A DNA stretch of 64,000 nt from NCBI RefSeq assembly GCF_003721515.1, contig NZ_RJJD01000003.1:496001-560000 (forward strand), written 5' to 3'. Shown piece after piece: positions 3,807 through 57,342 of this stretch. The DNA comes from Rufibacter latericius (GTDB lineage: Bacteria; Bacteroidota; Bacteroidia; Cytophagales; Hymenobacteraceae). The notes below the pieces were generated by a model, which saw only the letters and a program-made list of their open reading frames with translations, did no database searches and was not told the DNA's origin. Each line of letters opens with the position of its first letter. The stretch's first letter is position 1. Both the position numbers and the translations under genes were made by a program.

Positions 3807-3840
3807 TTTTTGGCCTGATTTTGGTAAAACAACGGATAAT
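3807..3840. repeat. Dispersed quasi-palindromic module, copy before the HMA gene
   Basis: A copy of the recurrent intergenic module TTTnGG-n5-TTTT-n3-AAAA-n5-CC-AAA. Here TTTTTGGCCTGATTTTG is followed by GTAAAACAACGGATAA. It ends 51 nt before the HMA ATG. The right arm is imperfect. Confidence 0.4.
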
Positions 3841-3891
3841 CTCCTAAGTAAGAATTTTTGTCTTTTAAATCATAACTCTAAACTATTAACC

Positions 3892-4242
3892 ATGAAAACC
3901 CTTAAAATCTGGCTGTTTTCTTTAGTACTTACCGGTTTGGCTACTGTTGGCTTCGCGCAAGGCGGCAAGAAAGGCGAAGAAGTGAAAATCAAAACCTCGG
4001 CGGTGTGCGACATGTGCAAAGCCACCCTGGAAAAAGGCTTGGCCTATGAGAAAGGCGTCAACAAAGCCACGCTGGATGTAGAGTCTAAGATTTTAACCGT
4101 GTCGTATAACGGAGAGAAAACATCTCTAGATAAAATCAAGAAAGCTGTGAATGAGCTGGGCTACGATGCCGATGACACCAAGGCAGCTTCCCGCGCCTAT
4201 GACCGTCTGGATGCCTGCTGCAAAAAAGACGCTGTTCACTAA
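3892..4242 (+). CDS. Secreted heavy-metal-associated (HMA) domain protein
   Basis: A 116-residue protein with a signal peptide (residues 1-22) and one HMA/MerP-like ferredoxin fold whose metal motif is CDMC (Cys39, Cys42), a variant of the usual MxCxxC. A second Cys pair lies near the C-terminus (DACCKKD). HMA domains bind Cu(I), Hg(II) or similar ions through the CxxC pair. Its location after the TonB receptor suggests a periplasmic metal carrier or scavenger for that system. A strong terminator follows directly, closing the set. Which metal it binds cannot be read from the sequence. Confidence 0.85.
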   Translation: MKTLKIWLFSLVLTGLATVGFAQGGKKGEEVKIKTSAVCDMCKATLEKGLAYEKGVNKATLDVESKILTVSYNGEKTSLDKIKKAVNELGYDADDTKAASRAYDRLDACCKKDAVH

Positions 4243-4249
4243 GCATCAA

Positions 4250-4303
4250 TTCCTATAAACAGAAAAGCCTGCCTATATGAGCAGGCTTTTCTGTTTATAG
4301 GAA
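4250..4303 (+). terminator. Strong terminator after the HMA gene
   Basis: A perfect 23-bp inverted repeat (arms 4250-4272 and 4281-4303) with an 8-nt loop, starting 7 nt after the stop. T- and A-rich segments within the arms (CAGGCTTTTCTG) make it a plausible terminator on both strands. Confidence 0.8.
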
Positions 4304-4462
4304 TTTCTTCTAATCACTTTTTCAAAGTGGGAAACAAACGCAAGGGAACAGGGTTGTTTTCCTCCTTTTCTAGAGCCTAGTTCTTTCCTTCTATCTGAAA
4401 AACACCCTACCTTTAACCGCTCACCAACGATGGCTTGAGTCAAACGCCAAATCATCCACTCC

Positions 4463-6573: not shown

Positions 6574-6576
6574 CCC

Positions 6577-6612
6577 TTTTTACGCTAATTTTCCTAAAAC
6601 ACGCTTAAAACC
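6577..6612. repeat. Dispersed quasi-palindromic module, copy at the 3' end of crtW
   Basis: TTTTTACGCTAATTTTCC then TAAAACACGCTTAAAACC. The spacing of T- and A-tracts fits the module but the GG/CC pair is degenerate. It ends 1 nt before the crtW stop codon on the other strand. Confidence 0.3.
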
Positions 6613-6613
6613 A

Positions 6614-7318
6614 CTAACGCCCTTTTACCAACCTATCTTTCTCCTGGTAGAGCTTCCACCAAGGCAGATAAGGTTTATCATGGTGTTCATAGTGGTACCC
6701 AAAAAAATAGCAGCTGATAAAGGCCCACAAATGATTACGGTTCTGGGTAGAGGATCTATGCCGATTGTCATGGTCGTGCTCTCCCCGGTGCGGCAGGTAC
6801 GTCCCGAAGTAGAATAACTGGAAGGTAGCCAGAACTGAGGGGACCATCCAAAACAGGATAATGTTTTCAATAGGGAACCAGAGTTGCAGCAAATGGTAAG
6901 TTGCCGCCATGAGCAGGACTTGTACAACGGTTATATATTGCTTCGCGAAACTGAAAAACCAAAGGAAGAAGTTTCCGCCGCGGTAATCGGGGTCTTGGTC
7001 AGTGGCTACGTGCTTGTGGTGCAGGTGGTGTTTGGGGTACAGGCGGCCGTAATAATTGTAAGCAAACAAACCGGCGCAAATGGTACCGATGAAGGTATTC
7101 AGGTTCTTGTTGCCGGGCGCTACTACCCCGTGCATGGCATCATGGGCAGTAATGAAAAGTCCGGTGTAAAGATGTGTCATCACCAATACTGCCAAATAAG
7201 TAAGGGGTGATTTGAAAGAAACATTCCAGTGCAGGAGAAACCAAAGCACACTGAACCATGCCACCAAGATGGCACAGGCAATGATGATTCCGGTATGTTT
7301 TTGGAAAACTTGCTTCAA
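6614..7318 (-). CDS. crtW: Beta-carotene ketolase CrtW-type fatty acid desaturase-like enzyme
   Basis: A 234-residue membrane di-iron oxygenase with His-box motifs HDAMHG, HHLHHKH and, near the C-terminus, HYEHHDKPYLPWW, the hallmark of CrtW ketolases. Several membrane segments alternate with these boxes. CrtW adds 4-keto groups to beta-ionone rings. Together with crtB, crtI and crtZ nearby this predicts a keto-hydroxy carotenoid such as a flexixanthin- or astaxanthin-type pigment; the product is inferred. The only start with the correct N-terminus is TTG (7316-7318); an in-frame TAG lies just upstream and no ATG occurs before residue 47. It lies downstream of ispH. Confidence 0.85.
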   Translation of the reverse strand: MKQVFQKHTGIIIACAILVAWFSVLWFLLHWNVSFKSPLTYLAVLVMTHLYTGLFITAHDAMHGVVAPGNKNLNTFIGTICAGLFAYNYYGRLYPKHHLHHKHVATDQDPDYRGGNFFLWFFSFAKQYITVVQVLLMAATYHLLQLWFPIENIILFWMVPSVLATFQLFYFGTYLPHRGEHDHDNRHRSSTQNRNHLWAFISCYFFGYHYEHHDKPYLPWWKLYQEKDRLVKGR

Positions 7319-7422
7319 AACAGATGTCTGCTGGTTGTTCTACTTATACGAAGATACCTTGTTTTGCTAATAAAGAGACAAAGAACTAACACGGTATGAA
7401 GCCTTCTTAGGAAAGCAATGCG

Positions 7423-7458
7423 GTTTTAAGGGCACTTTCTACAAATTACCTTCAAAGC
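7423..7458. repeat. Dispersed quasi-palindromic module, copy downstream of ispH
   Basis: GTTTTAAGGGCACTTTC then TACAAATTACCTTCAAAG. The AAGG/CCTT pair and T/A tracts fit the module; the inner tracts are reduced. It lies 14 nt beyond the ispH stop. Confidence 0.35.
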
Positions 7459-7471
7459 ACCAGTTCCTTCT

Positions 7472-12225: not shown

Positions 12226-12707
12226 TATTTTTCATTATTATTAAACCAAGCAAACACACCCTCACTAGTATTAACAGAAAGGATAGCTCCTGCCAAATCA
12301 TTTGGACCAGAAACTCCAATCCATTTCTCAGGACTTTGATATGTCCAAAAGGCTAGGGATATGCTTCTAGGAAGCAATACATACTAGAAAGAGAACCACC
12401 CTGGATTTTGCCTACCCTTAAAAAAGGAGAAAAAAATTAGAGGAAGCAGGCATAGAATGGAGACGTACTTTCGCCTCGTTTCAGGAAAACAAGCCTAAAA
12501 ACTGGCAGTAGGTAACAATCCCGAAAAGGAAGTCGGCTTTACAAAGGAGGAATTACCGGTAGCCGGACAGTAAAAACCTTCTTCTTTTTAGGCCAAACAG
12601 AATGAAGGCACTAGCGGAGGAGGTGCGAGAGAATTCTCTTTACATGAATTCACCCTAGTTTTAGGAAAACACCGGGTAAACGGAAATGAAGGGAAGCTAC
12701 CGCTAAC
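12226..12707. other. Intergenic region with two copies of the dispersed module
   Basis: About 480 nt with no supported gene. Two copies of the dispersed module are visible: 12470-12502 (core GTTTCAGGAAAACAAGCC) and 12651-12683 (core GTTTTAGGAAAAC flanked by ACCC and GGGT). Nothing else is recognisable. Confidence 0.5.
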
Positions 12708-15236: not shown

Positions 15237-16445
15237 TTACAGGCTTCTGATGCCTTCAAACCAAGGAATCAAATCCTTGATCATGGGTTCTAAGCTGCTG
15301 AAGTGCGTTCCGCCTTTCACCGGGATAAATTTAACGTCAGAAGCGCCGGCGGCTTTCATGGCATCGTAGGTCACCTGTGAGTTCACGAACGGAACCATGG
15401 TATCGGCGGTGCCGTGGTAAAGACGCGTGGGGCTTTTGGGCACGAAGGTTTTCAAACTATTGTTTTTTAAGGCCTGCTTTAACGCCACCTCACCATCTCC
15501 CCGGAGACCAGCCAGGAAAGTAGGGTTAAACAGCTTTGCCGGGTCTTTGGCCAAGGCACTGTTGATGGAAGAACTGGTTCGTGTTCCGTCAATCAGCTCC
15601 TGGATACGGGTGGCATACGGCTCCTGGAAAAAGTCGGTGAGCGGACGGTTCCAGTTGTAGGTTTTGTTGTACGCCTGCAGAATAAAGGCCAAGTTGGCCG
15701 GGTAGTCATACGATTGCCCCGAGATCACGCGGGACAGCATTCCTTCCAAGTCGTATCCGCCGGCTCCAGCGCCAGATGCGGTGACGGCGAGGTCGTGCTC
15801 CTCGTTTTCCTCAATTTCTTTCTGCGCCGCCAAGGTTACGTAACCGCCTTCTGAGTAGCCCGCCATAAACAATTGGTCAGAGGCCTTGATATTATTTTTC
15901 TGGAAGTACGATTTGCCGGCCTTGATCATGTCTACCACAGCCAAGCCTGAGTGCTTCACGTCATAGTAAGGGTGCAGAATCTGCTTTGACTCGCCATAAC
16001 CCAGGTAATCGGGTACGAGGGTCAAATACCCGGCCGCACCAAACGCCTCAAAACCGGTCAAGGAATTGATCTGAAAGTTACTGGGAGCGTATTTCTGGTC
16101 AAACGTAGTGCCGTGGTGGGCACTCAACAAAGGGGCCGGAGCGGTGAGGTTCAGAGGCACCACCATCAGGCCTGAGGCACGCACCTCTTGCCCGTTGTAC
16201 TGGGTCAGGTACACCAAGCGGTACACATCTACATCAAACTTCACCAGCTTCGCCAGCTCTGGCTGCCCATTACTGATAGCCACTTCCCTTAATCCAGCGG
16301 CTTGGATGGTCGTCAGTTTTTCTGCCGAGACAAAGTGTTCTTTCTGGGTTTGCTGTACCTGCTGGTTATCCAGCACCTCAGATTCCTTGCAAGAGGAAAA
16401 CCAGGAGGAAACGGCTAGCAGGAAAGATAAAAATATCGTTTTCAA
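15237..16445 (-). CDS. Alpha/beta hydrolase lipoprotein (secretory-lipase/esterase-like)
   Basis: A 402-residue protein with a lipoprotein-type N-terminus (Cys19 after a hydrophobic run ending WFSS). The alpha/beta-hydrolase fold shows the nucleophile elbow GYSEGG, an Asp in the GTADTMVPF segment and a His in KGGTHF, so the Ser-Asp-His triad looks complete. Such proteins resemble fungal/bacterial secretory lipases and prolyl-type esterases. The frame has only a TTG start (16443-16445) in front of the signal sequence. It is monocistronic with its own terminator. The substrate is unknown. Confidence 0.82.
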   Translation of the reverse strand: MKTIFLSFLLAVSSWFSSCKESEVLDNQQVQQTQKEHFVSAEKLTTIQAAGLREVAISNGQPELAKLVKFDVDVYRLVYLTQYNGQEVRASGLMVVPLNLTAPAPLLSAHHGTTFDQKYAPSNFQINSLTGFEAFGAAGYLTLVPDYLGYGESKQILHPYYDVKHSGLAVVDMIKAGKSYFQKNNIKASDQLFMAGYSEGGYVTLAAQKEIEENEEHDLAVTASGAGAGGYDLEGMLSRVISGQSYDYPANLAFILQAYNKTYNWNRPLTDFFQEPYATRIQELIDGTRTSSSINSALAKDPAKLFNPTFLAGLRGDGEVALKQALKNNSLKTFVPKSPTRLYHGTADTMVPFVNSQVTYDAMKAAGASDVKFIPVKGGTHFSSLEPMIKDLIPWFEGIRSL

Positions 16446-16515
16446 GATTTTGCTGCGTTAGGTGAGTATTATTTACTAAGGATACCAGCCGGCCTAAAGT
16501 TCCTTTCAGGGGATA

Positions 16516-16554
16516 CGTTTCGGGCCTTTTTTCCTTAAAAACAGCTTAAAACAG
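16516..16554. repeat. Dispersed quasi-palindromic module, copy between hydrolase and trx
   Basis: CGTTTCGGGCCTTTTTTCC then TTAAAAACAGCTTAAAAC. It lies in the divergent promoter region, about 70-80 nt from both start codons, so it cannot be a terminator for either gene. Confidence 0.5.
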
Positions 16555-16633
16555 AACTTGTTTTAGTTCCTCTGGCTTTTACCTAAAATTGTCTTTTTCC
16601 GTATAAACTGGCTGAAACAAGACAGAAAAAACC

Positions 16634-20173: not shown

Positions 20174-20210
20174 AGCTGTTTTCTGCGATATGGCTCCGGC
20201 CCGGCCTCAC

Positions 20211-20246
20211 CGTTTAGGGCCTGTAATCCGGAAAACCGCGCAAAAC
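20211..20246. repeat. Dispersed quasi-palindromic module, copy before the ABC ATPase
   Basis: CGTTTAGGGCCTGTAATCC then GGAAAACCGCGCAAAAC. It ends 31 nt before the ATPase ATG. The left inner T-tract is interrupted. Confidence 0.45.
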
Positions 20247-20277
20247 CATCACCCACTAACCCGCCAAGAAAAGAACC

Positions 20278-20988: not shown

Positions 20989-21257
20989 GTCCGGAGTTCT
21001 GAGTCCTGAGTTGAAAACAAAGATTGTTGAACTGCTGGCGCGAGCCTCCGGCTCGTGTCCGCTGGCATTCCAGATTCCAAGTTTGGAGATTGATTCGGCC
21101 ATAGATATATCCAATATGCGTGCGGACACGAGCCGGAGGTTCGCGCCAGCGACAGCAACGATGGAAGCCTTCCGTTTAGGGCTTTTTTTCAGAAAAACAG
21201 GCTTAATCCACCCCGCGTTTCCTTGACTCAAGACTCAGAACTATAGACTCAGAACTC
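20966..21257. repeat. Composite inverted-repeat island between ATPase and permease 1
   Basis: On the left are three tandem 14-bp units GAGTTCTGAGTCCG (20966-21007, the last with one change). On the right are two inverted copies, GACTCAGAACT (21232-21242) and GACTCAGAACTC (21246-21257). Inside is a 29-bp inverted repeat (21034-21062 and 21122-21150, 28 of 29 matching, containing GAGCCTCCGGCTCGTGTCC) around a 59-nt AT-richer spacer, plus one dispersed module copy. No ORF is inside. This nested architecture resembles a MITE- or REP-type insertion. Confidence 0.6.
21173..21209. repeat. Dispersed quasi-palindromic module, copy before permease 1
   Basis: CGTTTAGGGCTTTTTTTC then AGAAAAACAGGCTTAAT. 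It ends 56 nt before the permease ATG and lies within the composite repeat island. Confidence 0.5.
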
Positions 21258-23698: not shown

Positions 23699-23750
23699 AT
23701 TGCTTCGTTTAGGGACTGATTTTGAAAAATCCGCCCCTAAACGAAGCAAT
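23699..23750. repeat. Dispersed module with 16-bp perfect arms, before doxX-like gene
   Basis: Perfect 16-bp arms (23699-23714 and 23735-23750; outer sequence ATTGCTTCGTTTAGGG) flank the module core with GATTTTGAAAAATC at its centre. It lies just after permease 1 and 29 nt before the DoxX ATG. Confidence 0.75.
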
Positions 23751-24280: not shown

Positions 24281-26680
24281 ATGATAAAAAACTACCTCAA
24301 AATAGCCTGGCGGAATCTGCTTCGGCAAAAAGCGTACTCGGCCATCAACATCATTGGGCTAGCCACCGGTATTTCGGCTTGTCTGCTCATCTTCCTGTTT
24401 GTGCAGCACGAGTTGAGTTACGAGAAGCATTTCTCCAAAGCAGACAGCACGTACCGGGTGGTGAACGACCTGATTGTGGACGATGAGATTGAGAAAGCTT
24501 CCCTCACCACCGGCGGTCTGGCCCCAGCCCTGAAAGCGGATTACCCCGAGGTGGAAACCGCCGTGCGCCTGGTCAACGGCGACAAGCAGGCTGTGAGCGT
24601 CAGTGATGATAAGGTTTTCTACCTCAACAACTCCTATTTCGTTGACAGCACTTTCTTCTCCGTTTTTGATTACGAGTTCCTGAGCGGCGATCCGGCTAAG
24701 GCCTTGGCGGCTCCCTTGTCCATGGTCCTCACCCAGGCTACTGCCGAGAAACTCTTCGGGAGTGCGGCGGCGGCGATGGGGCAGTTAGTGAAAATTCAGG
24801 GCGAGTCGTTCAAGGTAACGGGCGTGCTGGCTCCATCCGGCCCCTCGCACCTGACGCCAGATTTCTTCGCCTCCATGAGTTCACTGGGCAACGAGTTCAT
24901 GCAGATGATGGAAGGGGAATGGGGAAACACCAACACGTACACGTATGTGGTACTGCGCAACCCCTCACAGATGGCTTCGCTGCAGGCGAAAATGGGCGAT
25001 TTTTTCCAAAAGAGGGTAAAACCAGCCTACGACCAGATGCAATCCTCGGGCCGGGTAGACTACAAAATTCAGCCCCTGACCGATGTTCACCTCACCAACG
25101 ACTGGTTGTATGAACTCTCACCCTCGGGCAACCGGTCGTACATTTTTATTTTCTCGGCGGTGGCCATTTTTGTGCTGCTCATTGCCTCCATCAACTACAT
25201 GAACCTGGCCACGGCCCGCTCCGCGAAACGCGCGAAAGAAGTGGGTCTGCGCAAGGTAGTAGGCGCGCACCGTTCGCAGTTGGTAGGTCAGTTCCTGGGC
25301 GAGTCACTGGTGATTACGTTGCTGGCGGTTCTGTTGGCCTTGGCGCTGGTGGAGTTGCTGCTGCCTACGTTCAACGGCCTTACGGGCAAAAACATTGGTT
25401 CGTCTTACCTGCTCAACCCGGTGTTCGGGCTCACGTTGCTGGGCATTATTCTTCTGATTGGCTTGGTGGCGGGCAGTTACCCGGCATTCTTCCTGTCGGG
25501 CTTTAAACCGGTGGATGTGCTTAAATCAGACAAAGCGCCGCGGGGCAGTGGTGCGACCTTGCGCAAAGGACTGGTGATTCTGCAGTTCACTATTTCGCTG
25601 GTGCTCATCATCGGCACCGTGGTGGTCTACAGCCAGATGGATTTCCTGAAGAAAGCCGACCTGGGCTTCAACAAAGAGCAGGTGGCCGTAATTGACATTC
25701 CCAGCGGAGACACCACCCTCACGAGTAAACTGCCTTTGATCAAGAGTGAGATGCTGGCCAACCCGAATGTGACGCAGGTCTCGGCCTCGGCCCAGATTCC
25801 GGGTCAGGGCGCGGGGGTGCTCATTTTTATGGTGGAGCGCAACAACGCCATGGTGGAAAAAACCATGAACATGATGACCGTGGACTATGACTTCCTGGAC
25901 TTGATGGGCATTAAGCTGAAAGCCGGCCGAAACTTCTCCCAGGACATGGGCACCGACCAAAGCGCAGGCTTCATCATCAACGAGGCGGCCGCCAACCTGC
26001 TGGGTTGGCAGGACGCCGTGGGCAAACGTATCGGGTTCAGTGACACTACCAGCGGCAAAGTCATTGGAGTGGTCAAAGATTTCAACTACACCTCACTGCA
26101 CGACAATATTGCGCCGGTGGTACTGCGTGTGCGGCCCAGAACCTCAGGCTATCTGCTGGCGCGGCTCTCCGGCGAAAACTTTGAGGAAGCTTTGGCGCAC
26201 GTGAAAACCACTTGGACTCGCTTTGACCCCAACCGCCCCATTGACCTCACCTTTCTGGACGAGAGTTTCAACGCGCAGTATCAATCTGAGGAGAAGATGC
26301 TCAGGATCTTCGGGTACTTCTCTATTCTGACCATCATGATTGCCTGCATGGGCTTATTCGGGCTTACGTCTTTCATGGCCGAGCTGCGCACGCGAGAAAT
26401 TGGAATACGGAAAGTGCTGGGTTCCTCGGTGATGGGTATTGTGATGCTCCTGACCAAAGATTTTGCAGTGCTGGTGGTTATTGCCATCGTGCTGGCTTCA
26501 CCCCTGGCCTGGTACGGCATGCAGAAATGGTTGCAGGAATTCGCTTACCGGGTGCCGCTGAGCCCATGGTTGTTTGTGGGGGCGGGCGTGGTGGCGCTGG
26601 CCATTGCCATAGCCACAGTGAGCGTGCAGGCGGCTAAGGCGGCTTTGTTAGACCCCATCAAAGCCCTTAGAAGCGAGTAA
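24281..26680 (+). CDS. ABC transporter permease 2 (MacB/FtsX-like)
   Basis: A 799-residue paralog of the flanking permeases, closest to permease 3: the first 40 residues are nearly identical (KNYLKIAWRNLLRQKAYSAI). It has the same N-terminal helix, periplasmic MacB-PCD-like domain, central FtsX motif (KEVGLRKVVGAH), second periplasmic domain and C-terminal FtsX motif (REIGIRKVLGSS). It starts 33 nt after the DoxX gene. Repeated permeases with one ATPase suggest alternative or hetero-oligomeric transporters. Confidence 0.92.
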   Translation: MIKNYLKIAWRNLLRQKAYSAINIIGLATGISACLLIFLFVQHELSYEKHFSKADSTYRVVNDLIVDDEIEKASLTTGGLAPALKADYPEVETAVRLVNGDKQAVSVSDDKVFYLNNSYFVDSTFFSVFDYEFLSGDPAKALAAPLSMVLTQATAEKLFGSAAAAMGQLVKIQGESFKVTGVLAPSGPSHLTPDFFASMSSLGNEFMQMMEGEWGNTNTYTYVVLRNPSQMASLQAKMGDFFQKRVKPAYDQMQSSGRVDYKIQPLTDVHLTNDWLYELSPSGNRSYIFIFSAVAIFVLLIASINYMNLATARSAKRAKEVGLRKVVGAHRSQLVGQFLGESLVITLLAVLLALALVELLLPTFNGLTGKNIGSSYLLNPVFGLTLLGIILLIGLVAGSYPAFFLSGFKPVDVLKSDKAPRGSGATLRKGLVILQFTISLVLIIGTVVVYSQMDFLKKADLGFNKEQVAVIDIPSGDTTLTSKLPLIKSEMLANPNVTQVSASAQIPGQGAGVLIFMVERNNAMVEKTMNMMTVDYDFLDLMGIKLKAGRNFSQDMGTDQSAGFIINEAAANLLGWQDAVGKRIGFSDTTSGKVIGVVKDFNYTSLHDNIAPVVLRVRPRTSGYLLARLSGENFEEALAHVKTTWTRFDPNRPIDLTFLDESFNAQYQSEEKMLRIFGYFSILTIMIACMGLFGLTSFMAELRTREIGIRKVLGSSVMGIVMLLTKDFAVLVVIAIVLASPLAWYGMQKWLQEFAYRVPLSPWLFVGAGVVALAIAIATVSVQAAKAALLDPIKALRSE

Positions 26681-26719
26681 CTGTTTAGGGGCTGTTTTCT
26701 AAGAAATGGCTCCTAAACG
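26681..26719. repeat. Dispersed quasi-palindromic module between permeases 2 and 3
   Basis: CTGTTTAGGGGCTGTTTTC then TAAGAAATGGCTCCTAAAC. Outer arms GTTTAGG (26683-26689) and CCTAAAC (26712-26718) pair perfectly. It begins immediately after the permease 2 stop and ends 52 nt before the permease 3 ATG. Confidence 0.65.
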
Positions 26720-26771
26720 AAAACTATTTCAGAACTTAGGACGGCCTCCAGGGGCGCGATTTTATACCCGA

Positions 26772-29192: not shown

Positions 29193-29193
29193 C

Positions 29194-29232
29194 CTGTTTC
29201 GGGTCTGTTTTTTAGAAATCGGCTTTAAAATG
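29194..29232. repeat. Dispersed quasi-palindromic module after permease 3
   Basis: CTGTTTCGGGTCTGTTTTT then TAGAAATCGGCTTTAAAATGG. It starts 1 nt after the stop codon. The right arm has drifted (GGCTTT instead of nnCCnG). Confidence 0.5.
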
Positions 29233-29306
29233 GAAGGCTTTGTTTTCCTTTTCCGGGTAAAGCTGGCGGTGCGTATGGTAAAAGGTCCGGATCGTTGCTA
29301 AGGGTG

Positions 29307-29350
29307 CGTTTCGGTTTTAGGTACAGTTTTACAAAATCAGGCCAGAAACG
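29307..29350. repeat. Dispersed quasi-palindromic module upstream of the M61 gene
   Basis: Outer arms CGTTTC (29307-29312) and GAAACG (29345-29350) enclose GTTTTAGGTACAGTTTTAC and AAAATCAGGCCAGAAAC. It lies 145 nt before the M61 start. The rest of the 29233-29495 gap shows no gene; TAACTTTC near 29454 is a weak -7 box. Confidence 0.5.
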
Positions 29351-29495
29351 AATATGTAAGTTTCCGGGCCGCCCCACGACTAAAGAACTGCGGGGAACAG
29401 ACGTTTTCCCTATAATTGAAACCTGATTCTTCCGGTATAGACACCTAAACCCGATAACTTTCGTTTTCTTAGCATTCCAACACCTATAAAACTAT

Positions 29496-31374: not shown

Positions 31375-31430
31375 GGCAGTGCCCGTTTCGGGGGTGTTTT
31401 CAGAAAAACGCCTTTGAAACGGGCACTGCC
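31375..31430 (+). terminator. Module-type hairpin with T-run: terminator of the M61 gene
   Basis: Outer arms of 15 bp pair perfectly (31375-31389 and 31416-31430; GGCAGTGCCCGTTTC), enclosing the conserved module core GGGGGTGTTTTCAG / AAAAACGCC. A TTTTT tract follows at 31431. This copy can act as a rho-independent terminator. Confidence 0.8.
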
Positions 31431-34864: not shown

Positions 34865-35036
34865 TACTTTGAGGGACTGTTTTAGAAGAGTTTTGCGAAA
34901 ACACCTCCAAAACCGGAGGATAAAAGTTGGCAAGGGAAGGCCTATCTAGTTCGCCCCCAAGATCCTTCCAGGATGACAAAGGAGAAGGAAGCAAACTTCT
35001 AGATAAATCCTATAGACCCAGGATTCAGAACTCACC

Positions 35037-35855: not shown

Positions 35856-35871
35856 GGTAATTGGGTAAGTC

Positions 35872-35907
35872 GCTTTGGGGCTGTTTTCGGGGAAACGGCC
35901 CCAGAAC
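35872..35907. repeat. Dispersed quasi-palindromic module in the pnp leader
   Basis: GCTTTGGGGCTGTTTTCGG then GGAAACGGCCCCAGAAC. TGGGGC (35876-35881) and GCCCCA (35898-35903) pair perfectly. It ends only 16 nt before the pnp ATG and follows the sppA terminator, so it belongs to the pnp upstream region. Confidence 0.65.
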
Positions 35908-35977
35908 GGGTTCATAAAGGGGGCGGAAAGGTCGTAAAAAATTGGGAAAACCTTTTGTTTGGCTTGCTTAAAAACAA

Positions 35978-38754: not shown

Positions 38755-38767
38755 AGGGAATCTCTCC

Positions 38768-38805
38768 CGTTTTGGTGCTTGTTTCCCGAAAACAAGGCCG
38801 AAACC
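38768..38805. repeat. Dispersed quasi-palindromic module after the barrel protein gene
   Basis: CGTTTTGGTGCTTGTTTCC then CGAAAACAAGGCCGAAACC. TTGTTT and AAACAA form the inner pairing. It lies 13 nt after the stop and before a separate terminator. Confidence 0.55.
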
Positions 38806-38857
38806 ATTTTACCTTCGGGTGTCCTTGTTTGGAAAGTCTTACCGGGAAGGATAAAAC

Positions 38858-38890: not shown

Positions 38891-38956
38891 ACACCTACAC
38901 ATCAACAATCATCCAAACGTATTTCTTGTTTCCATTTACAGCCCGAAATTTGAAAA

Positions 38957-41305
38957 TCAGGCCCGAACGGCAATTCTATTTGCCCATTTCATGCGGTTGG
39001 CATAACGGGCTAAGGCATCATCCAGAGACGGTAATATTTGGCCGCGTTCACTGCTTAAGGCGCTGTAGCGGGGTCTGGGTGCCTGTTGTCCTTCCAACTC
39101 ATTGGCCGAAAAGCCTTGTATCAACCCAGGGTCAAGGCCGGCAATCTGCGCGGCTTTCCGGGCAAACTCAGCCCAGGACAGTTCTCCTTCGTTGGTCAGG
39201 TGCCAGATACCAGATTCCTCGTCCACGAGCAGGTCAAGGCAGGCATTTACCAGATCGGGCACGTAGGTGGGCGAAATGATGATGTCTTCCGGAGCCAGGA
39301 ACGTGTTTCCTTGGGTGAGTTGCTTTATCATCAAGGTCAGGAAGTTGGCCTCGTCCCACGGGCCGAAAAATGAACTGGTTCTTACCACCAATGCTCCTGG
39401 GTGCATGTCCTGCACATATTTCTCGGCTTGGGCTTTGCTTTGGCCATACACGTTCAGGGGGTTCACGGCATCGGCCTCGGTATAGGGTTGCTGCTTCAGG
39501 CCATCAAACACCAGGTCAGAGGAGAAAGTCAGGTACTGGATTCCCCTTTTCTGACAGGTGGCCGCCAGCAACATGGCCCCGTGCGAATTCACCAGGTGGC
39601 AGTTTTCGCAGTCTTCCTCCGCCTCGTCTATTTTCACATAGCCCGCCGCATTGATCACCGCCCAGGGATTATAATAGTTCATGGCCCGCTCAATAGAAAA
39701 CGGATCGGTGATGTTCATCTGTTTGCGGCCCACTAACCGGTACGGGATGTGGCGGTCACCGCAAAGGCGGGCAAACGCGCTCCCCAACGTACCCGTAGCG
39801 CCGGTGATGAGAATGGGCCGGGTGGTATTTTCCAGGTGAAGGACCTCTTTCTCGGTAAGCCCATCGCCGTCCGGAATGGTTTCTGTTTCGCAGATTGGAT
39901 TCCAGTTATTGCGCCACACCGATTTGGTTCCTCTCCCAAACCTACTCTCTTCGCGGTTCAGGAAAAGCTCCGCATGTTTGCTTTCCTCGGTAAACGGATA
40001 GAAAAAACGGTCGGGGCGCTGCCACCAACCGGGCAGATGAAACAGCGGATGTTCGTACTCCTTGCCCTGCGCCAATTGGGTCAACATTTTGGCCAGAGCC
40101 GTGGGGCGGGGTTTAGGTCCGCGCACATCAAAGACTCCTGGCTCATAGAAGCCATCGGCGCGGGTGACCAGGTTCACCCAGTCAAAGGTGCCCAGCAAAG
40201 ACCAAGCCGCCACGCCTACAACGTTTACTCCTTCTTTTTTCAAATCTGTGCAGGAATCCCACACGTGCTTAAACCACTGCACCTGTTCCTCGCGGGCTCC
40301 GCAGATATGGACCTCGGTCACCGAGATCGGCAAATTGTACCGGTCCCAGGCCTCGCGTAGCAACACCCGATGACCCGAATAGAACCCTGCCGGGTCCTCG
40401 GTTTTCACCCGGAGCGCCTCCACGTCTGAGTACTGGTGAATGCCGTTTCCGCCGTGGGTCCATTCCGGGAAAGCAGCCAGGTTCTCGTCCAGGTAGCGCT
40501 CGCTGGGCGGGTAATGGTTTATACCGATTATGTCTGGTGGGCACGGATTGTCCCGGAACCATTGTAGGTCTTCCTCCGGAATGCCGTTGTCCACGAAATA
40601 CTTCCACATGGAGTGCTCCGGGGTAAGCGTACCGGTAAGTAAATCCAGACTTGCCCAGCGGCGGTCGTTATCTAGTTTGGCCTGGTAGGCCAATAATGGG
40701 GAACTATAGGTTTTGCCAAGGTCCTCTGTCTGCACCAGTTTAGCGTTGGGAATTACCTCCCGGATGGCCTGCATGGCCAGGACGGTGGCTTTGCACTGAT
40801 GCAGCAAAGTTAGCCCAAAGGTGAGACCATCTTTCCCGTGCGGGTACCAGTGGCCGTACAAACCGCTAAAACGGGCGGTTGTCAAAGGTTCATTTACAGG
40901 GGTAAAGTACTCCAGCCAAGGGTAACGTTCGGCTACGGCGCGGGCGTACTCGGCTACTCCTTCAGGGAAAGTTGGATCAGCGAGGTTAGTATGCCGTGGG
41001 CCGCTGCCATGGTGCACCAGGCCAATGATGGGGGTAATTTTATGCTCCTGTAGCAGTTGCATGCGGCGGTCGGCCCAGGTCCAGTCAGCGGTGGCGGGTC
41101 CGTTGGGGGCGGTGAGTTCCCAGAGCAACGGATACCGCATTTTACTTACGCCAATGGAGGCAAACAAGGCAATGTCTTCTTCCCGTACGGCGTGTCCGTT
41201 TAACTGCATCTGGTCCAGGTAATCATCGCCTACCCGGTTTACCGTACACTCCAACCCAGCCCAGACTTCTGGGTACAGGGGGTTCAGGTTTTCACTTTTC
41301 TCCAT
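38957..41305 (-). CDS. Fused GH1 glycosidase-like and RmlD-like NAD(P)-dependent sugar reductase
   Basis: A 782-residue two-enzyme fusion. Residues 1-430 form a GH1-type TIM barrel with acid/base Glu139 (TPVNEP) and nucleophile Glu331 (SVTEVH), both present. Residues 495-782 form an extended SDR/RmlD-type domain with the NAD(P) motif TGATGTLG (501-508) and the YxxxK pair (Tyr620, Lys624). RmlD enzymes reduce dTDP-4-keto sugars; GH1 enzymes hydrolyse beta-glycosides. No signal peptide is seen, so it acts in the cytoplasm. The joint substrate is unknown. No frameshift or in-frame stop lies between the halves. Confidence 0.88.
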   Translation of the reverse strand: MEKSENLNPLYPEVWAGLECTVNRVGDDYLDQMQLNGHAVREEDIALFASIGVSKMRYPLLWELTAPNGPATADWTWADRRMQLLQEHKITPIIGLVHHGSGPRHTNLADPTFPEGVAEYARAVAERYPWLEYFTPVNEPLTTARFSGLYGHWYPHGKDGLTFGLTLLHQCKATVLAMQAIREVIPNAKLVQTEDLGKTYSSPLLAYQAKLDNDRRWASLDLLTGTLTPEHSMWKYFVDNGIPEEDLQWFRDNPCPPDIIGINHYPPSERYLDENLAAFPEWTHGGNGIHQYSDVEALRVKTEDPAGFYSGHRVLLREAWDRYNLPISVTEVHICGAREEQVQWFKHVWDSCTDLKKEGVNVVGVAAWSLLGTFDWVNLVTRADGFYEPGVFDVRGPKPRPTALAKMLTQLAQGKEYEHPLFHLPGWWQRPDRFFYPFTEESKHAELFLNREESRFGRGTKSVWRNNWNPICETETIPDGDGLTEKEVLHLENTTRPILITGATGTLGSAFARLCGDRHIPYRLVGRKQMNITDPFSIERAMNYYNPWAVINAAGYVKIDEAEEDCENCHLVNSHGAMLLAATCQKRGIQYLTFSSDLVFDGLKQQPYTEADAVNPLNVYGQSKAQAEKYVQDMHPGALVVRTSSFFGPWDEANFLTLMIKQLTQGNTFLAPEDIIISPTYVPDLVNACLDLLVDEESGIWHLTNEGELSWAEFARKAAQIAGLDPGLIQGFSANELEGQQAPRPRYSALSSERGQILPSLDDALARYANRMKWANRIAVRA

Positions 41306-44415: not shown

Positions 44416-44850
44416 ATGGAACATAGAAACCCCTTAAACACCCACCCCGAAACAACCTCCACACCCATTGAAACCGTCATGGTCATTGACGATGATGCCA
44501 ACTGGGTGTTTATCTCTAAACTTTACCTGAAGAAAGCGGGCATCAAGAACGAAGTAATCACGGCCAAAAACGGCCAGGAAGCCATCAGCAAACTTCAGGA
44601 ACTCACCAGCAACGGAGACCAAAAACTCCCCGACCTGATCTTCGTGGATCTTTGGATGCCGGTCATGGATGGCTTTGAATTACTGGAACAGATCACCCAA
44701 TTAAACCAACTAGACCTGAGCCAAACCAAGGTGTATGTCTGTAGCAGTTCCTTCAACCCGCAGGACAAAGAAAAAGCAAGCCAATTCCCCATTACCGGTT
44801 TCCTGACCAAGCCTTTCAACCAGGAGACTCTTAAAGAGATTTTAGGGTAA
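44416..44850 (+). CDS. Single-domain response regulator (CheY/Rcp1-like)
   Basis: A 144-residue receiver domain with no output domain. The acidic pair is in VIDDDANW, the phospho-acceptor Asp in IFVDLWMPVMDG, the switch Ser in CSSSF and the Lys in LTKPF. Such Rcp1-like regulators work with PAS or phytochrome-like kinases; the partner here is the kinase 53 nt upstream. The stop lies in a module-like segment (44840-44873), and a strong terminator follows. Confidence 0.9.
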   Translation: MEHRNPLNTHPETTSTPIETVMVIDDDANWVFISKLYLKKAGIKNEVITAKNGQEAISKLQELTSNGDQKLPDLIFVDLWMPVMDGFELLEQITQLNQLDLSQTKVYVCSSSFNPQDKEKASQFPITGFLTKPFNQETLKEILG

Positions 44851-44869
44851 ATTCTCGAAAACACCTATA

Positions 44870-44911
44870 AAACAGAAATGGGCAATCTCTGGTGGTTGCC
44901 CATTTCTGTTT
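44870..44911 (+). terminator. Bidirectional terminator between response regulator and rarA
   Basis: A perfect 16-bp stem (arms 44870-44885 and 44896-44911; AAACAGAAATGGGCAA) with a 10-nt loop, between convergent genes. Confidence 0.8.
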
Positions 44912-46223: not shown

Positions 46224-46296
46224 GGGAAGCGGTTTCTGGTGTACCTCTCGGGATTAAGCCGAAGGAAACAAAAGGCAATTTACTTTCTTTCTCCCA

Positions 46297-46335
46297 CTGT
46301 TTTGGGACAGATTTTCAGAAATACCCCTAAAAACA
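46297..46335. repeat. Dispersed quasi-palindromic module upstream of rarA
   Basis: CTGTTTTGGGACAGATTTTC then AGAAATACCCCTAAAAACA. GTTTTgGGg and CCCCTAAAAAC pair. It lies between divergent rarA and the + strand gene at 46465. Confidence 0.5.
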
Positions 46336-46464
46336 CGTGACGGATAGTTGCCTTGGAGAAAGCGTTTTTAAGATGGAGCAGGTCCAGGCAATTCCGCTTA
46401 ACCTGGTTTGCAGACCTGCGTATGCGTTGGAAAGGCCTTTCTGCTCACCAAAACCTAACATAAG

Positions 46465-46890: not shown

Positions 46891-46899
46891 CTTTCCGTC

Positions 46900-46940
46900 C
46901 TGCTTCGGGGCTGTTTTTGAGAAAACACCCTTAAAACCAG
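46900..46940. repeat. Dispersed quasi-palindromic module after the small membrane protein
   Basis: CTGCTTCGGGGCTGTTTTTG then AGAAAACACCCTTAAAACCAG. CTGcTT and AAaCCAG continue the arms outward. It starts 10 nt after the stop. Confidence 0.6.
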
Positions 46941-49391: not shown

Positions 49392-49460
49392 GTTTCGTTT
49401 TTTGCTTCGGCAAAGGTAGAAGATACTTTGACCTGACCCAGAAACTAAATTAATGGAAAC

Positions 49461-49496
49461 GTTTAAAGGCCGTTTTCAGGAAAAGAAGCCTAAAAG
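49461..49496. repeat. Dispersed quasi-palindromic module between tauE-like gene and 49599
   Basis: GTTTAAAGGCCGTTTTCAG then GAAAAGAAGCCTAAAAG. It lies in a divergent promoter region, 70 nt from the tauE-like start and about 100 nt from the ATG at 49599, so it is not a terminator of either. Confidence 0.55.
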
Positions 49497-49598
49497 AAAA
49501 GAAAGCTCTGAACCGGTATGCCCCCAGTGTGAAGCTTCTTGCCTTGTCAGAGACAAAATAATCTCTTTATATTAGGCCATCACTTGATCAATCTCGCC

Positions 49599-50339: not shown

Positions 50340-50343
50340 GCTC

Positions 50344-50380
50344 CTTTCAGCCTTCTTTCAGAAAAAGAGGCAGAAAACAG
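50344..50380. repeat. Dispersed quasi-palindromic module before the YdeI-like gene
   Basis: CTTTCAGCCTTCTTTCAG then AAAAAGAGGCAGAAAACAG. GCCT and AGGC pair, with the GG/CC polarity swapped relative to most copies. It ends 42 nt before the ATG at 50423. Confidence 0.4.
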
Positions 50381-50422
50381 AATTGTTTCTTAGTTTCGGC
50401 AAACGAACCACCGCACCCTTCC

Positions 50423-52966: not shown

Positions 52967-53013
52967 AGGAACCGGTAGAAAAGAATGATGAAGAAGAGCT
53001 GTATTCAACAATA

Positions 53014-53051
53014 CGCTTTAAGGCTGCTTTTCTTAAAACAGCCTTAAAGCG
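53014..53051. repeat. Dispersed quasi-palindromic module between ygiB- and ygiC-like genes
   Basis: Arms CGCTTTAAGGCTG (53014-53026) and CAGCCTTAAAGCG (53039-53051) pair perfectly over 13 bp, with CTTTTCTTAAAA inside. It lies within the presumed operon, 47 nt before the ygiC-like ATG. Confidence 0.75.
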
Positions 53052-53090
53052 GTACTTAAAATTAATCAAAGATTGTAAACGAGAAATGGA

Positions 53091-54776: not shown

Positions 54777-54782
54777 AGGAGG
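54777..54782 (+). promoter_or_regulatory. Perfect Shine-Dalgarno sequence before the SPW gene
   Basis: AGGAGG lies 7 nt before the ATG at 54790. Most genes in this window, as in Bacteroidota generally, have no such site, so it stands out and suggests strong translation. Confidence 0.75.
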
Positions 54783-54789
54783 AATAAAA

Positions 54790-55182: not shown

Positions 55183-55218
55183 GGGTAATTAAGTTTTTGA
55201 GTTAAAGATAGCGCAAAG

Positions 55219-55244
55219 AAGGCTGGGGTTTCCCAGCCTTTTTT
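55219..55244 (+). terminator. Terminator of the SPW gene
   Basis: A 9-bp stem (AAGGCTGGG, 55219-55227; arm 55232-55240) with a 4-nt loop and a following TTTT. A classical rho-independent terminator. Confidence 0.88.
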
Positions 55245-55297
55245 GTGTTCTTCTCTTTTTACCGGAACCGTCTCTGGGATACCCTTTTCTGTTTGCG

Positions 55298-55305
55298 TAC
55301 CTTTG
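55298..55305 (+). promoter_or_regulatory. -7 promoter box before the ABC-F gene
   Basis: TACCTTTG matches TAnnTTTG and ends 4 nt before the ATG at 55310, predicting a leaderless or nearly leaderless mRNA, as for the gene at 1008. Confidence 0.4.
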
Positions 55306-55309
55306 CGCC

Positions 55310-57211
55310 ATGAATTACCTTTCAGCTGACTCTATCTCTAAAAGCTACGGCGATCGCTGGCTTTTTCAGAACCTTATATTTGGTATTAACCGAGGCCAAC
55401 GCATTGCCCTCATCGGCGCCAACGGAGCCGGAAAAACTACCCTTTTGCAAATCTTAGCCGGTACCGTTCCGCCAGATAACGGAACAGTAAGCGTGCGCAA
55501 GGGCATCAGGGTGGGTTATTTATGGCAACAGCCCGAGTTCCCCGCCGGAGCCACGGTGCAGGAAGCCATTTTCTCGGGACAGACCGAAGTCCTGGATGCT
55601 ATCAGAGACTACGAAGCTTGCATTGAAGACCCCAACACCACCGATGCCCGCATGCAGCAGGTGATGGAACGCATGGAAAATCTGCACGCCTGGGAATACG
55701 AGGTGCGCACCAAGCAGATTCTGGGCAAACTGGGCATCCAGAACCTGGACGTACAGGTAGAGCACCTTTCCGGCGGACAGAAAAAGCGCGTGGCCATGGC
55801 CCGGGTTCTCATTGAAGAACCAGACCTCCTGATTCTGGATGAGCCTACCAACCACTTGGACCTGGAAACCATTGAGTGGTTTGAGAACCTCTTGACCACC
55901 GAACAGACCACCCTTCTAATGGTAACCCACGACCGTTACTTCCTGGACCAGGTAGCCAACGAGATCGCGGAACTAGACCGTGGACAGGTCTACACCTACA
56001 AAGGCAACTACAGCTATTACGTAGAGAAAAAAGCCGAGCAGGAAGAAGCCAACGCTGCCGAGATGGGAAAGGCCAAGCAATTGCTCAAAAAAGAACTGGA
56101 GTGGATGCGCAAGCAGCCCCGTGCCCGAGGCACCAAGTCCAAGTCAAGGGTAGATGCGTTTTATGACTTAAAAGATAAAACCTCGCAAAAAGACACGCGC
56201 ACTGCCTTGGAACTGTCTGTTAAGAGCACCCGCCAGGGAAACCAGATACTGGAGATTGACCACCTGAGCAAAAGCTTCGGGGACAAAGTGATACTGGATG
56301 ATTTCAGCTACATCTTCCGGAAGAAGGACCGCGTAGGCATTGTGGGCCCGAACGGTGCCGGCAAAACCACCTTCCTAAACATGCTTACCGGCCGCCTGGC
56401 CCCGGACAGCGGCGAAATCATTGCCGGCCAGACCACCGTTTTCGGTTATTACACCCAATCTGAGCTAACCTTCAACGAGAACCAGCGGGTGATTGACGTA
56501 GTGAAGGAAGTAGCCGAGGTAGTGGAAACCGGCAACGGCGAAATCATCACGGCCAGTCAGTTCCTGCAACATTTCCAGTTCCCTCCGGCCCAGCAATACA
56601 CGTTTGTAAGCAAATTGAGCGGTGGCGAGAAACGCAGATTGCAGTTACTGCGCGTCCTTATTAAGAACCCAAACTTTTTGATTTTGGATGAGCCTACCAA
56701 TGATTTGGACATCCAGACCCTGAACATCCTGGAAGATTTTCTCCTGAACTTCGGTGGCTCGCTGCTCATCGTTTCTCACGACCGTTACTTCATGGACCGT
56801 TTGGTAGAGCACCTGTTCGTGTTTGAGGAAAACGGCCAGCTCCGCGACTTTCCGGGAAACTACACAGATTACCGTGAGTGGGCCAAGGAGCGTGAGAACA
56901 TGAAACTAGATGAGGTGAAACCTATCACTAAAGCCGTTGAACCTGCCGCTTCCATTCCTTCCCCTACTGCCGCTCCGGTAGCAGATGTGACACCTAAACG
57001 GAAAGCCTCGTTCAAGGAAAAACAGGAGTATGAACGCCTGGAGAAAGAAATAGAGAACCTGGAAGCCGAGAAAGATGCCTTAGCCGAGGAGATGAATTCC
57101 GGTTCTGCCAACCATAAACGTCTGGCAGAATTGGCGCAGCGCATCAAGGACATCAACACCGCCGTGGAAACTAAAACGGAGCGTTGGCTTGAGTTGGCCG
57201 AGTTCGTCTAG
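55310..57211 (+). CDS. ABC-F family ATP-binding protein (Uup-like)
   Basis: A 633-residue soluble protein with two ABC domains joined by a charged linker. First Walker A GANGAGKT (residues 36-43), signature LSGGQKKR; second Walker A GPNGAGKT, signature LSGGEKRR. A C-terminal coiled coil (about 560-630, Glu/Lys-rich) is typical of the Uup branch. ABC-F proteins act on the ribosome or, for Uup, in branched DNA or ribosome quality control rather than transport. No membrane partner is adjacent, as expected. Confidence 0.92.
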   Translation: MNYLSADSISKSYGDRWLFQNLIFGINRGQRIALIGANGAGKTTLLQILAGTVPPDNGTVSVRKGIRVGYLWQQPEFPAGATVQEAIFSGQTEVLDAIRDYEACIEDPNTTDARMQQVMERMENLHAWEYEVRTKQILGKLGIQNLDVQVEHLSGGQKKRVAMARVLIEEPDLLILDEPTNHLDLETIEWFENLLTTEQTTLLMVTHDRYFLDQVANEIAELDRGQVYTYKGNYSYYVEKKAEQEEANAAEMGKAKQLLKKELEWMRKQPRARGTKSKSRVDAFYDLKDKTSQKDTRTALELSVKSTRQGNQILEIDHLSKSFGDKVILDDFSYIFRKKDRVGIVGPNGAGKTTFLNMLTGRLAPDSGEIIAGQTTVFGYYTQSELTFNENQRVIDVVKEVAEVVETGNGEIITASQFLQHFQFPPAQQYTFVSKLSGGEKRRLQLLRVLIKNPNFLILDEPTNDLDIQTLNILEDFLLNFGGSLLIVSHDRYFMDRLVEHLFVFEENGQLRDFPGNYTDYREWAKERENMKLDEVKPITKAVEPAASIPSPTAAPVADVTPKRKASFKEKQEYERLEKEIENLEAEKDALAEEMNSGSANHKRLAELAQRIKDINTAVETKTERWLELAEFV

Positions 57212-57234
57212 TTCTCTATATCAGATAGAACCTA

Positions 57235-57288
57235 CAACGGTTTGCTTTGTCGCTGCTTTCTTGAAAACGACCCCAAAGCAGACCGTTG
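57235..57288. repeat. Dispersed module with extended arms after the ABC-F gene
   Basis: Outer arms 57235-57249 and 57274-57288 (CAACGGTTTGCTTTG) pair at 14 of 15 positions around GTCGCTGCTTTC/TTGAAAACGACCCC. First of three tandem hairpins in this convergent gap. Confidence 0.65.
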
Positions 57289-57302
57289 CATTTACAGTTC
57301 TC

Positions 57303-57342
57303 TTGTTTTGGAGCCCATTTTATCAAAACAGCCCCTAAACAA
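57303..57342. repeat. Second tandem module copy after the ABC-F gene
   Basis: TTGTTTTGGAGCCCATTTT then ATCAAAACAGCCCCTAAACAA. Arms TTGTTT (57303-57308) and AAACAA (57337-57342) pair. It lies 15 nt after the first copy, the only clear tandem pair in the window. Confidence 0.6.

What the first reader, a model, noticed from the sequence alone, without database searches (positions are those of the whole stretch)
3807..57342. A dispersed ~33-nt quasi-palindromic module occupies more than twenty intergenic regions
Reading all gaps side by side shows one recurring pattern: TTTnGG, 5 nt, TTTT, 3 nt, AAAA, 5 nt, CCnAAA. Good copies: 16516, 20211, 21173, 23699, 26681, 29194, 29307, 31375, 35872, 38768, 46297, 46900, 49461, 53014, 57235, 57303; weaker: 3807, 6577, 7423, 12470, 12651, 34880, 44840, 50344. 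The core is conserved while outer arms differ in sequence yet stay complementary at several loci (16 bp at 23699, 15 bp at 31375, 13 bp at 53014). Copies lie both 5' (16-57 nt before starts) and 3' of genes and often beside a separate terminator, so termination alone does not explain them. T-tracts in the left half and A-tracts in the right half are spaced near 10-11 bp, which predicts bent DNA. One copy per ~3 kb implies of the order of a thousand per genome. I know of no description of such a family.
Basis: partly seen in the sequence, partly recalled or inferred. Interest (0 to 1): 0.85.

Follow-up and report, generated by a model that had tools for sequence, protein, structure and literature searches.

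The report
Genus-wide DNA dyads at gene boundaries
Bacteria of the genus Rufibacter carry an estimated two to three thousand copies of a 40-letter two-sided DNA motif, usually one per gap between genes and kept in the same places across species; it looks like the docking site of an unknown DNA-binding protein that marks the ends of gene units.

Summary
The motif is real and larger than reported. The own genome has 742 matches (≤2 mismatches) against 2 for the reversed pattern. All 16 genomes of the genus (Rufibacter) carry it (44-1312 matches at ≤1 mismatch); 188 other family genomes have at most 2. A dyad scan recovers 24 of 24 reader copies and finds 40 sites in the window, about 500 per Mb.

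As a whole it is not a REP, terminator or uptake-sequence family. Conserved are two inverted ~17-bp half-sites (GTTTnGGgCyTGTTTT), 2-4 bp apart. In most copies of the own genome arms pair no better than arms swapped between copies, G-T equals A-C mismatches and the halves are strand-symmetric: a double-stranded DNA site. Gaps are filled more evenly than chance, near 3' ends. Copies sit at the same places in diverged species; T-tracts are conserved while flanks are not. A minority (41 of 865 with ≥8-bp outer arms) form long 3'-end hairpins with covarying arms.

Best reading: binding site of an unidentified dimeric protein marking transcription-unit boundaries. Protein and function are inferred.

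The parts
3804..3844 (.). dyad, 59 nt after a stop, codirectional gap; hit in 5 of 5 congeners compared (weak in G004)
6574..6614 (.). dyad, convergent gap, 3 nt from a stop; hit in 5 of 5 congeners compared
7421..7460 (.). dyad (weak)
12464..12504 (.). dyad, codirectional gap
12644..12684 (.). dyad (weak); the G004 copy at this place lies in a terminator-like hairpin with 13-bp arms
16514..16555 (.). dyad in a divergent gap; hit in 5 of 5 congeners compared
20209..20249 (.). dyad, divergent gap
21171..21211 (.). dyad, codirectional gap
23704..23745 (.). dyad, 12 nt after a stop, 17 of 19 core pairs and 5-bp outer arms
26680..26721 (.). dyad, 3 nt after a stop
29193..29233 (.). dyad, 4 nt after a stop; at 5-6 nt in 4 congeners
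29312..29352 (.). second dyad of the gap
31382..31422 (.). dyad in the apical part of a long hairpin with 10-bp outer arms followed by a T-run; arms pair with other letters in G009, G010 and G006, short in G008, G012 and G007
34876..34916 (.). dyad, convergent gap
35870..35910 (.). dyad overlapping the 5' end of predicted ORF 35037-35915 (-)
38767..38807 (.). dyad, 16 nt after a stop, convergent gap
38932..38971 (.). weaker dyad overlapping the 3' end of a predicted gene
44836..44875 (.). dyad overlapping an ORF end, convergent gap
46296..46336 (.). dyad in a divergent gap; also in the 4 congeners where the gap was found
46899..46940 (.). dyad, 12 nt after a stop, convergent gap
49458..49499 (.). 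dyad in a divergent gap
50341..50381 (.). dyad, 5 nt after a stop
53013..53053 (.). dyad, codirectional gap; hit in 5 of 5 congeners compared
57242..57282 (.). dyad with 9-bp outer arms; arms of 7-8 bp with other letters in G008, G014, G010 and G005, short in G003 and G004
57303..57343 (.). second dyad of the convergent gap, highest-scoring copy of the window

Best explanation
The family is a genus-wide set of DNA-level dyad sites: two inverted ~17-bp half-sites (GTTTnGGgCyTGTTTT, with T-tracts about one helical turn apart) separated by 2-4 bp. Each is most likely bound by a dimer of one abundant, sequence-specific DNA-binding protein not identified here. The sites sit usually once per gap, mostly just behind the 3' end of the upstream gene, and I think they act as transcription-unit boundary elements, blocking read-through and/or the spread of supercoils in both directions. 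At a minority of loci the dyad forms the upper part of a long 3'-end hairpin whose lower stem is conserved, covarying and partly terminator-like. Shown: copy number, genus restriction, dyad anatomy, strand symmetry, even filling of gaps, 3' bias, positional conservation, constraint on T-tracts, species-specific consensus, covarying arms at a minority. Inferred: the protein, its dimer state, and the boundary function.
For: Half-sites exceed background only as inward-facing dyads: half-site pairs at gaps 2, 3 and 4 number 126, 211 and 100 (neighbouring registers of one site counted separately), and unpaired half-sites on one strand (195) do not exceed the reversed control (218). In the own genome 171 of 187 intergenic copies have fewer than 16 of 19 core pairs and average 10.1, arm-swapped controls of the same kind 10.5. 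Oriented along transcription, G-T 329 versus A-C 314 (p=0.58); the two halves differ in none of 8 genomes beyond what 19 tested positions allow (lowest nominal p 0.046). Gaps ≥80 nt with a dyad: codirectional 86 of 139 (56.3 expected), convergent 38 of 47 (26.2 expected), 0 of 2000 length-weighted simulations as high. Presence at orthologous gaps, stratified by gap type and length: own genome versus G004, 61 shared of 103 against 50.4 expected (0 of 5000); offset median 7 nt versus 22 nt for non-orthologous gaps. T-tract columns 0.77-0.88 identical, 30-nt flanks 0.45-0.63, over 8 species pairs. In G004 the copies of shared gaps have its own tight consensus (98 of 158 half-sites match ≥15 of 17 letters; 9 of 162 in the own genome).
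Against: No binding protein was found; HU copy number is the same in and out of the genus (1-2). A share of copies pairs better than swapped arms: with ≥17 of 19 core pairs 10 of 183 versus 0.6 expected in the own genome, 70 of 154 versus 33.5 in G004, 29 of 122 versus 11.2 in G001; in G001 the whole folding-energy distribution is shifted. A pure binding site does not need this. Divergent gaps also carry copies, and in the own genome these too are evenly spread (25 of 56 gaps ≥80 nt, 19.2 expected, p=0.0045). In 464 kb, 46-56 of 234-249 copies lie inside predicted ORFs, with 5-9 expected in all from the control. Adjacency of gene pairs is no lower across dyad gaps. The GG columns are no better kept than the letters between. 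A ±1 bp tolerance in half-site spacing is unusual for a rigid dimer. The length-weighted null overstates evenness if copies only avoid promoter regions.
Confidence: 0.47

Rival explanations
1. A REP- or MITE-like mobile palindrome family that burst at the base of the genus, tolerated at 3' ends and excluded from promoters, later partly co-opted.
For: High copy, palindromic, intergenic, convergent > codirectional > divergent density in the own genome; tight consensus in G004 and G001 (24.8 and 22.6 bits per half); a tail of perfect palindromes.
Against: Y1 transposase genes are absent from G006 and present in motif-free genera. Copies are evenly spread over gaps, agree at orthologous places and are constrained at T-tracts. 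In G004 the shared sites carry the G004 consensus, i.e. sites changed in place; new insertions in addition are not excluded (10 gaps of 103 have a dyad in G004 only).
Confidence: 0.15
2. RNA hairpins: intrinsic or bidirectional terminators, or 3'-end stabilisers, whose upper part happens to share a consensus.
For: 3' bias. Copies with outer arms ≥8 bp: 22 convergent, 19 codirectional, 0 divergent, against 162, 367 and 104 for arms ≤3. T-runs beside arm 6-7 copies 14/26 versus 96/367. Arms covary between species: 140 of 330 cells changed on both sides and still paired. Excess of near-perfect copies in G004 and G001 and better folding than chimeras in G000, G004 and G001.
Against: Most copies of the own genome do not pair above swapped controls; no G-U excess and no sense asymmetry; most copies have no T-run, and arm ≥8 copies have it on the sense side in only 6 of 19; terminator-like hairpins occur with and without the motif at rates within the range of four sister genera; no Rfam match in the window.
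Confidence: 0.2
3. Nucleoid-architecture or topoisomerase sites (gyrase/BIME-like, or sites of a nucleoid-associated protein) with no direct role in termination.
For: Thousands of strand-symmetric DNA sites, densest between convergent genes, where positive supercoils gather (recalled).
Against: Even filling of gaps and placement a few nt behind stop codons kept between species suggest a per-transcript role; HU is not expanded.
Confidence: 0.15
4. DNA-uptake-type sequences in inverted pairs, as in Haemophilus and Neisseria.
For: A genus-specific word in inverted pairs at 3' ends, as described for USS terminators in H. influenzae (PMC5217627, passages seen).
Against: Single half-sites show no excess: 56 of 331 intergenic and 139 of 195 coding half-sites have no partner, together below the reversed-control number of 218.
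Confidence: 0.02

Closest known systems
REP / BIME elements with TnpA-REP (RAYT)
   Same: 20-50 nt, palindromic, high copy, mostly intergenic (PMC8266576 passages); preference for 3' ends is recalled
   Different: No GTAG/CGTC-type tag, no Y1-transposase dependence, hairpin not intact in most copies of the own genome, positions kept across a genus
USS/DUS inverted-pair terminators (Haemophilus, Neisseria)
   Same: Lineage-specific word forming dyads at 3' ends (PMC5217627 passages)
   Different: Single half-sites not abundant; no stem and T-run in most copies
Unassigned spaced palindromic motif pairs in other bacteria (e.g. GCTTAT-N5-AAGCG, 114 copies in A. ebreus; PMC5217627 passages)
   Same: Spaced motif pair, intergenic, 44 convergent, 59 co-oriented, 4 divergent, near gene ends, function unknown
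   Different: 52-125 copies in the passages seen; here thousands (extrapolated), genus-wide, positionally conserved, with per-species consensus
Roadblock terminators and insulators bound by DNA-binding proteins (Reb1, TTF-I, CTCF; recalled)
   Same: Would work alike: a DNA site at unit ends read by a protein
   Different: No binder or effect has been shown here

Membership tests
REP (GTAG/CGTC superfamilies) | conserved tetranucleotide beside the palindrome | tested here: not met
   flanking columns from -6 to -20 carry no consensus; consensus ends at cG/tG next to TTT
REP (GTAG/CGTC superfamilies) | associated RAYT (Y1) transposase | tested here: not met
   0-6 PF01797 matches per genome in 16 genus genomes, none in G006; 0-8 in 23 other genomes
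REP (GTAG/CGTC superfamilies) | intact hairpin | tested here: not met
   171 of 187 own-genome copies have <16 of 19 pairs and average no better than arm-swapped controls; a minority, larger in G004 and G001, are near-perfect palindromes
Intrinsic (Rho-independent) terminator | hairpin followed by T-run | tested here: not met
   not met for the family as a whole; met at part of the long-armed minority, e.g. 31382-31422
DNA uptake sequence (USS/DUS) | abundant single copies, in and between genes | tested here: not met
   half-sites enriched only as dyads
Known Rfam RNA family | covariance-model match | tested here: not met
   0 matches in the window at gathering threshold
Binding site of a dimeric DNA-binding protein | inverted half-sites at near-fixed spacing, strand-symmetric, under purifying selection | tested here: met
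   spacing varies by one bp either way
Binding site of a dimeric DNA-binding protein | identified binder and measured binding | not testable with these tools
   needs pull-down, EMSA or ChIP

The most novel reading that the evidence does not exclude
At the base of Rufibacter a DNA-binding protein acquired thousands of sites, one at almost every transcription-unit boundary, giving a bacterium a dedicated genome-wide insulator/roadblock system. Protein and sites co-evolve, so that each species has re-tuned its sites in place.
Probability: 0.3. Interest if true: 0.92.

Novelty: new variant of a known kind. Interest (0 to 1): 0.76.

Why it matters
High-copy intergenic palindromes in bacteria are usually put down to mobile REPs, uptake words or terminators. 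This family, as a whole, fails those definitions where tested. It is genus-wide, absent from the other family genomes searched, and kept site by site while species differ in consensus. If a single protein reads it, Rufibacter would offer a bacterial model of genome-wide transcription-unit boundaries, and a natural experiment on how a protein and its many sites change together.

Tried and rejected
RAYT/REP origin: tested with PF01797 in 39 genomes, no link. The one Y1 match in the own genome has three dyads within 1 kb, all on one side, not the flanking arrangement recalled for RAYT genes. HU expansion: none. RNA hairpin as the general explanation: wobble and asymmetry tests negative. My first complementarity test used one fixed centre and was confounded by variable spacing, so it was repeated with free centre, by spacing class and by folding; all three show an excess in part of the copies. 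Terminator replacement: terminator-like hairpins are within the range of four sister genera (100 kb each, 14-37 gene ends per class) and somewhat commoner beside the motif. Do dyads mark gene pairs whose adjacency is lost? Not significant (p=0.39 and 0.46). Rfam: nothing. Literature: 8 searches. Two papers hold the words Rufibacter and palindromic, once each (not opened); none hold Rufibacter with genome and intergenic, or Hymenobacteraceae with repeat and intergenic regions. Only passages found by term were seen in PMC3733652, PMC8266576 and PMC5217627; other papers were seen as listings only. Finding the binder by presence/absence was not attempted: whole proteomes were not at hand.

Limits: genes were called with a home-made dicodon caller, so starts and small genes are uncertain. 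Positional analyses used 464 kb of the own genome, 480 kb of G004, 240 kb of G001, 160 kb of G008 and 80 kb each of nine other congeners (13 of 16 genus genomes), not whole genomes. Orthologous-gap tables contain only gaps whose two genes are reciprocal best hits, adjacent in both species, and ≥60 nt in both; others were dropped. Unstratified, the odds ratio is above 1 in 43 of 43 species pairs with ≥15 gaps and p<0.05 in 33 of them; only 7 of the 43, chosen by me, were tested with strata. In one search only the first cases were printed. In one search copies were picked in one species and the alignment may be anchored by the motif. The confidence of the best explanation was lowered from 0.50 to 0.47, and that of the RNA-hairpin rival raised from 0.18 to 0.20, after rechecking the G004 and G001 pairing excess.
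Full report
What was checked. In 464 kb of that genome a symmetric weight matrix gives 264 hits against 8 in the reversed sequence; 195 of the 264 are intergenic though intergenic DNA is 21% of the stretch.

Who has it. With up to one mismatch, 16 of 16 genus genomes have 44 to 1312 matches (controls 0-1); of 188 other genomes of the family, 183 have none and five have one or two. In the wider sample with up to two mismatches the 43 genomes outside the genus have 0-12 matches, like their controls (0-18). Density by dyad scan with per-species matrices is 338-638 per Mb in eight species, controls 0-6 hits per stretch. The spread in pattern counts thus reflects mostly how tight each species' consensus is (11.7 bits per half in G008, 24.8 in G004).

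Anatomy. The unit is two inverted half-sites. Inward-facing half-site pairs at gaps 2, 3 and 4 number 126, 211 and 100, with 13 at gap 1 and at most 6 at any other spacing; outward pairs are at most 5 at any spacing; the one strong tandem signal, an offset of one base, is register ambiguity in the T-tracts. As distinct sites, 48, 135 and 65 of 249 have gaps 2, 3 and 4; after refitting the matrix the register moves to 7, 94 and 130 of 234. Unpaired half-sites do not exceed background. The strongest columns are TTT and TTTT, about one helical turn apart in each half; GG and the letters between are looser, and beyond about five flanking bases there is no consensus.

DNA or RNA. If these were hairpins, the two arms of one copy should match each other better than arms taken from different copies. 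In 187 intergenic copies of the own genome they do so only through a tail: 16 have at least 16 of 19 pairs versus 1.8 expected, and the other 171 average 10.1 pairs versus 10.5 for swapped arms below the same limit. Against this, with per-species matrices the tail is larger elsewhere: at least 17 of 19 pairs in 70 of 154 copies of G004 (33.5 expected) and 29 of 122 of G001 (11.2 expected), but 10 of 183 (0.6) in the own genome and 4 of 62 (0.2) in G008. Folding energies beat chimeras in G000, G004 and G001, not significantly in G008; in the own genome the medians of the core hardly differ (-7.7 and -7.2), in G001 the whole distribution is shifted. Oriented along the transcript in codirectional gaps, G-T and A-C mismatches are equal (329 and 314, p=0.58; in the outer arms 812 and 861, p=0.24), and the upstream and downstream halves do not differ beyond chance for 19 positions (eight genomes). 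I conclude that the main element is a strand-symmetric site in double-stranded DNA, with self-pairing an extra property of part of the copies.

Where it sits. In the own genome density is 3.9 per kb between convergent genes, 2.0-2.1 in codirectional gaps and 1.0 in divergent gaps; in G001 convergent and codirectional are equal. Gaps of at least 80 nt with a dyad: 86 of 139 codirectional (56.3 expected from the same number thrown at random by length), 38 of 47 convergent (26.2 expected). The same evenness appears in G004, G001 and G008 for these two classes. In divergent gaps it is weaker: significant in the own genome (25 of 56, 19.2 expected, p=0.0045), not in the other three. A length-weighted null is generous to this result if copies merely avoid promoters. 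In codirectional gaps of at least 120 nt the copies crowd towards the upstream stop: 34 of 91 centres lie within 60 nt of it and 5 of 91 within 60 nt of the next start.

Conservation. At orthologous gaps presence agrees beyond what gap type and length predict in the seven pairs tested: own genome versus G004, 61 shared of 103 gaps against 50.4 expected (0 of 5000 permutations); G003-G014, 23 of 37 against 17.4; G013-G006, 19 of 37 against 14.0; the other four have p between 0.009 and 0.033. Without strata the odds ratio is above 1 in 43 of 43 pairs, p<0.05 in 33. Shared copies lie a median of 1-9 nt apart relative to the nearer gene end, against 18-35 nt for other gaps of the same type. Within aligned copies the T-tract columns are 0.77-0.88 identical, the letters between them 0.48-0.72 and the 30-nt flanks 0.45-0.63, over eight species pairs; the GG columns (0.41-0.68) are no better kept than the letters between, so the T-tracts carry most of the constraint.

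Change in place. In G004 (R. immobilis) the copies in gaps shared with the own genome have a tight species consensus (98 of 158 half-sites match at 15 or more of 17 letters; 9 of 162 in the own genome), while the DNA around them is unique. I read this as many sites following one changed reader; homogenisation by copying cannot be excluded, and the many near-perfect palindromes of G004 would fit it.

The long-armed minority. Forty-one of 865 copies in gaps of 13 genomes have outer arms of eight or more pairs (best of three registers, one mismatch allowed). They lie 22 between convergent genes, 19 codirectional and 0 divergent, against 162, 367 and 104 for copies with arms of at most three. At such loci (19 loci) the orthologue often keeps pairing with different letters: its arm is six or more in 52% of comparisons, against 4% where the arm is 0-2. 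Counted by cell, 236 of 330 are paired, 140 of them changed on both sides, against 2601 of 6592 paired at short-armed loci scored at the same eight positions; comparisons share loci and are not independent. Examples in the window are 31382-31422, where the arms differ between the own genome, G010, G009 and G006 yet pair and are followed by T-runs, while G008, G012 and G007 have short arms, and 57242-57282. T-runs are only moderately enriched: 14 of 26 for arms 6-7 and 6 of 19 for arms of 8 or more on the sense side, versus 96 of 367. Here the dyad forms the upper part of a 3'-end hairpin. This ties the family to transcript ends without making most copies terminators; terminator-like hairpins are found beside and without it, at rates within the range of four sister genera.

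What it probably is. A dimeric protein reading each half at two places a turn apart would explain the dyad, the symmetry, the constraint and the species-wide consensus. Roughly one site per gap, crowding at 3' ends and shared by both genes at convergent ends, suggests a boundary role: stopping read-through, or holding supercoils, or both. The protein, its binding and the function are inferences. Doubts: copies in divergent gaps, copies inside ORFs, spacing tolerance, and the share of self-complementary copies.

Known families. REPs are described as palindromes with a tag tetranucleotide, served by a Y1 transposase that reads the folded hairpin (passages of PMC8266576; PMC3733652); tag, transposase and hairpin were each tested and not met for the family. 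Uptake words need abundant single copies: not met. Motif pairs between convergent genes with unknown function and 52-125 copies are on record in other bacteria (passages of PMC5217627) and are the nearest precedent. Eight searches of the held library found no description in Rufibacter or its family; papers outside that library were not searched.

Noticed in passing
window 4644, 11243, 18859, 27162, 32726, 35870, 42870, 43522, 48595, 52028, 59049: Eleven dyads lie inside predicted ORFs, against about two expected in the whole window from the reversed control. Whether they are functional is unknown.
   Followed up: partly
window 59428-59468: A dyad 3 nt upstream of a start codon; one half (around TTTGCCCATTTTTGG) is nearly unchanged in four congeners while the other half varies: possibly a regulatory use of the site.
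   Followed up: no
L023:4803-5054 (G000:C17:380803-381054): The only Y1 transposase match of the own genome; three dyads lie within 1 kb on one side.
   Followed up: partly
Rufibacter stretches versus L203-L222: Predicted non-coding fraction is 17-25% in stretches of 13 Rufibacter genomes versus 12-19% in 100-kb stretches of four sister genera, by a simple gene caller.
   Followed up: no
window 24281-26680: MacB/FtsX-type permease; one search shows partial paralogues just upstream and elsewhere in the genome, so this looks like a permease array with dyads in the gaps.
   Followed up: no
window 16377-16633 and 46224-46464: Divergent gaps keep a dyad together with a conserved neighbouring stretch (cctaaagttccttt; gcaatttactttcttt) in several congeners.
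   Followed up: no
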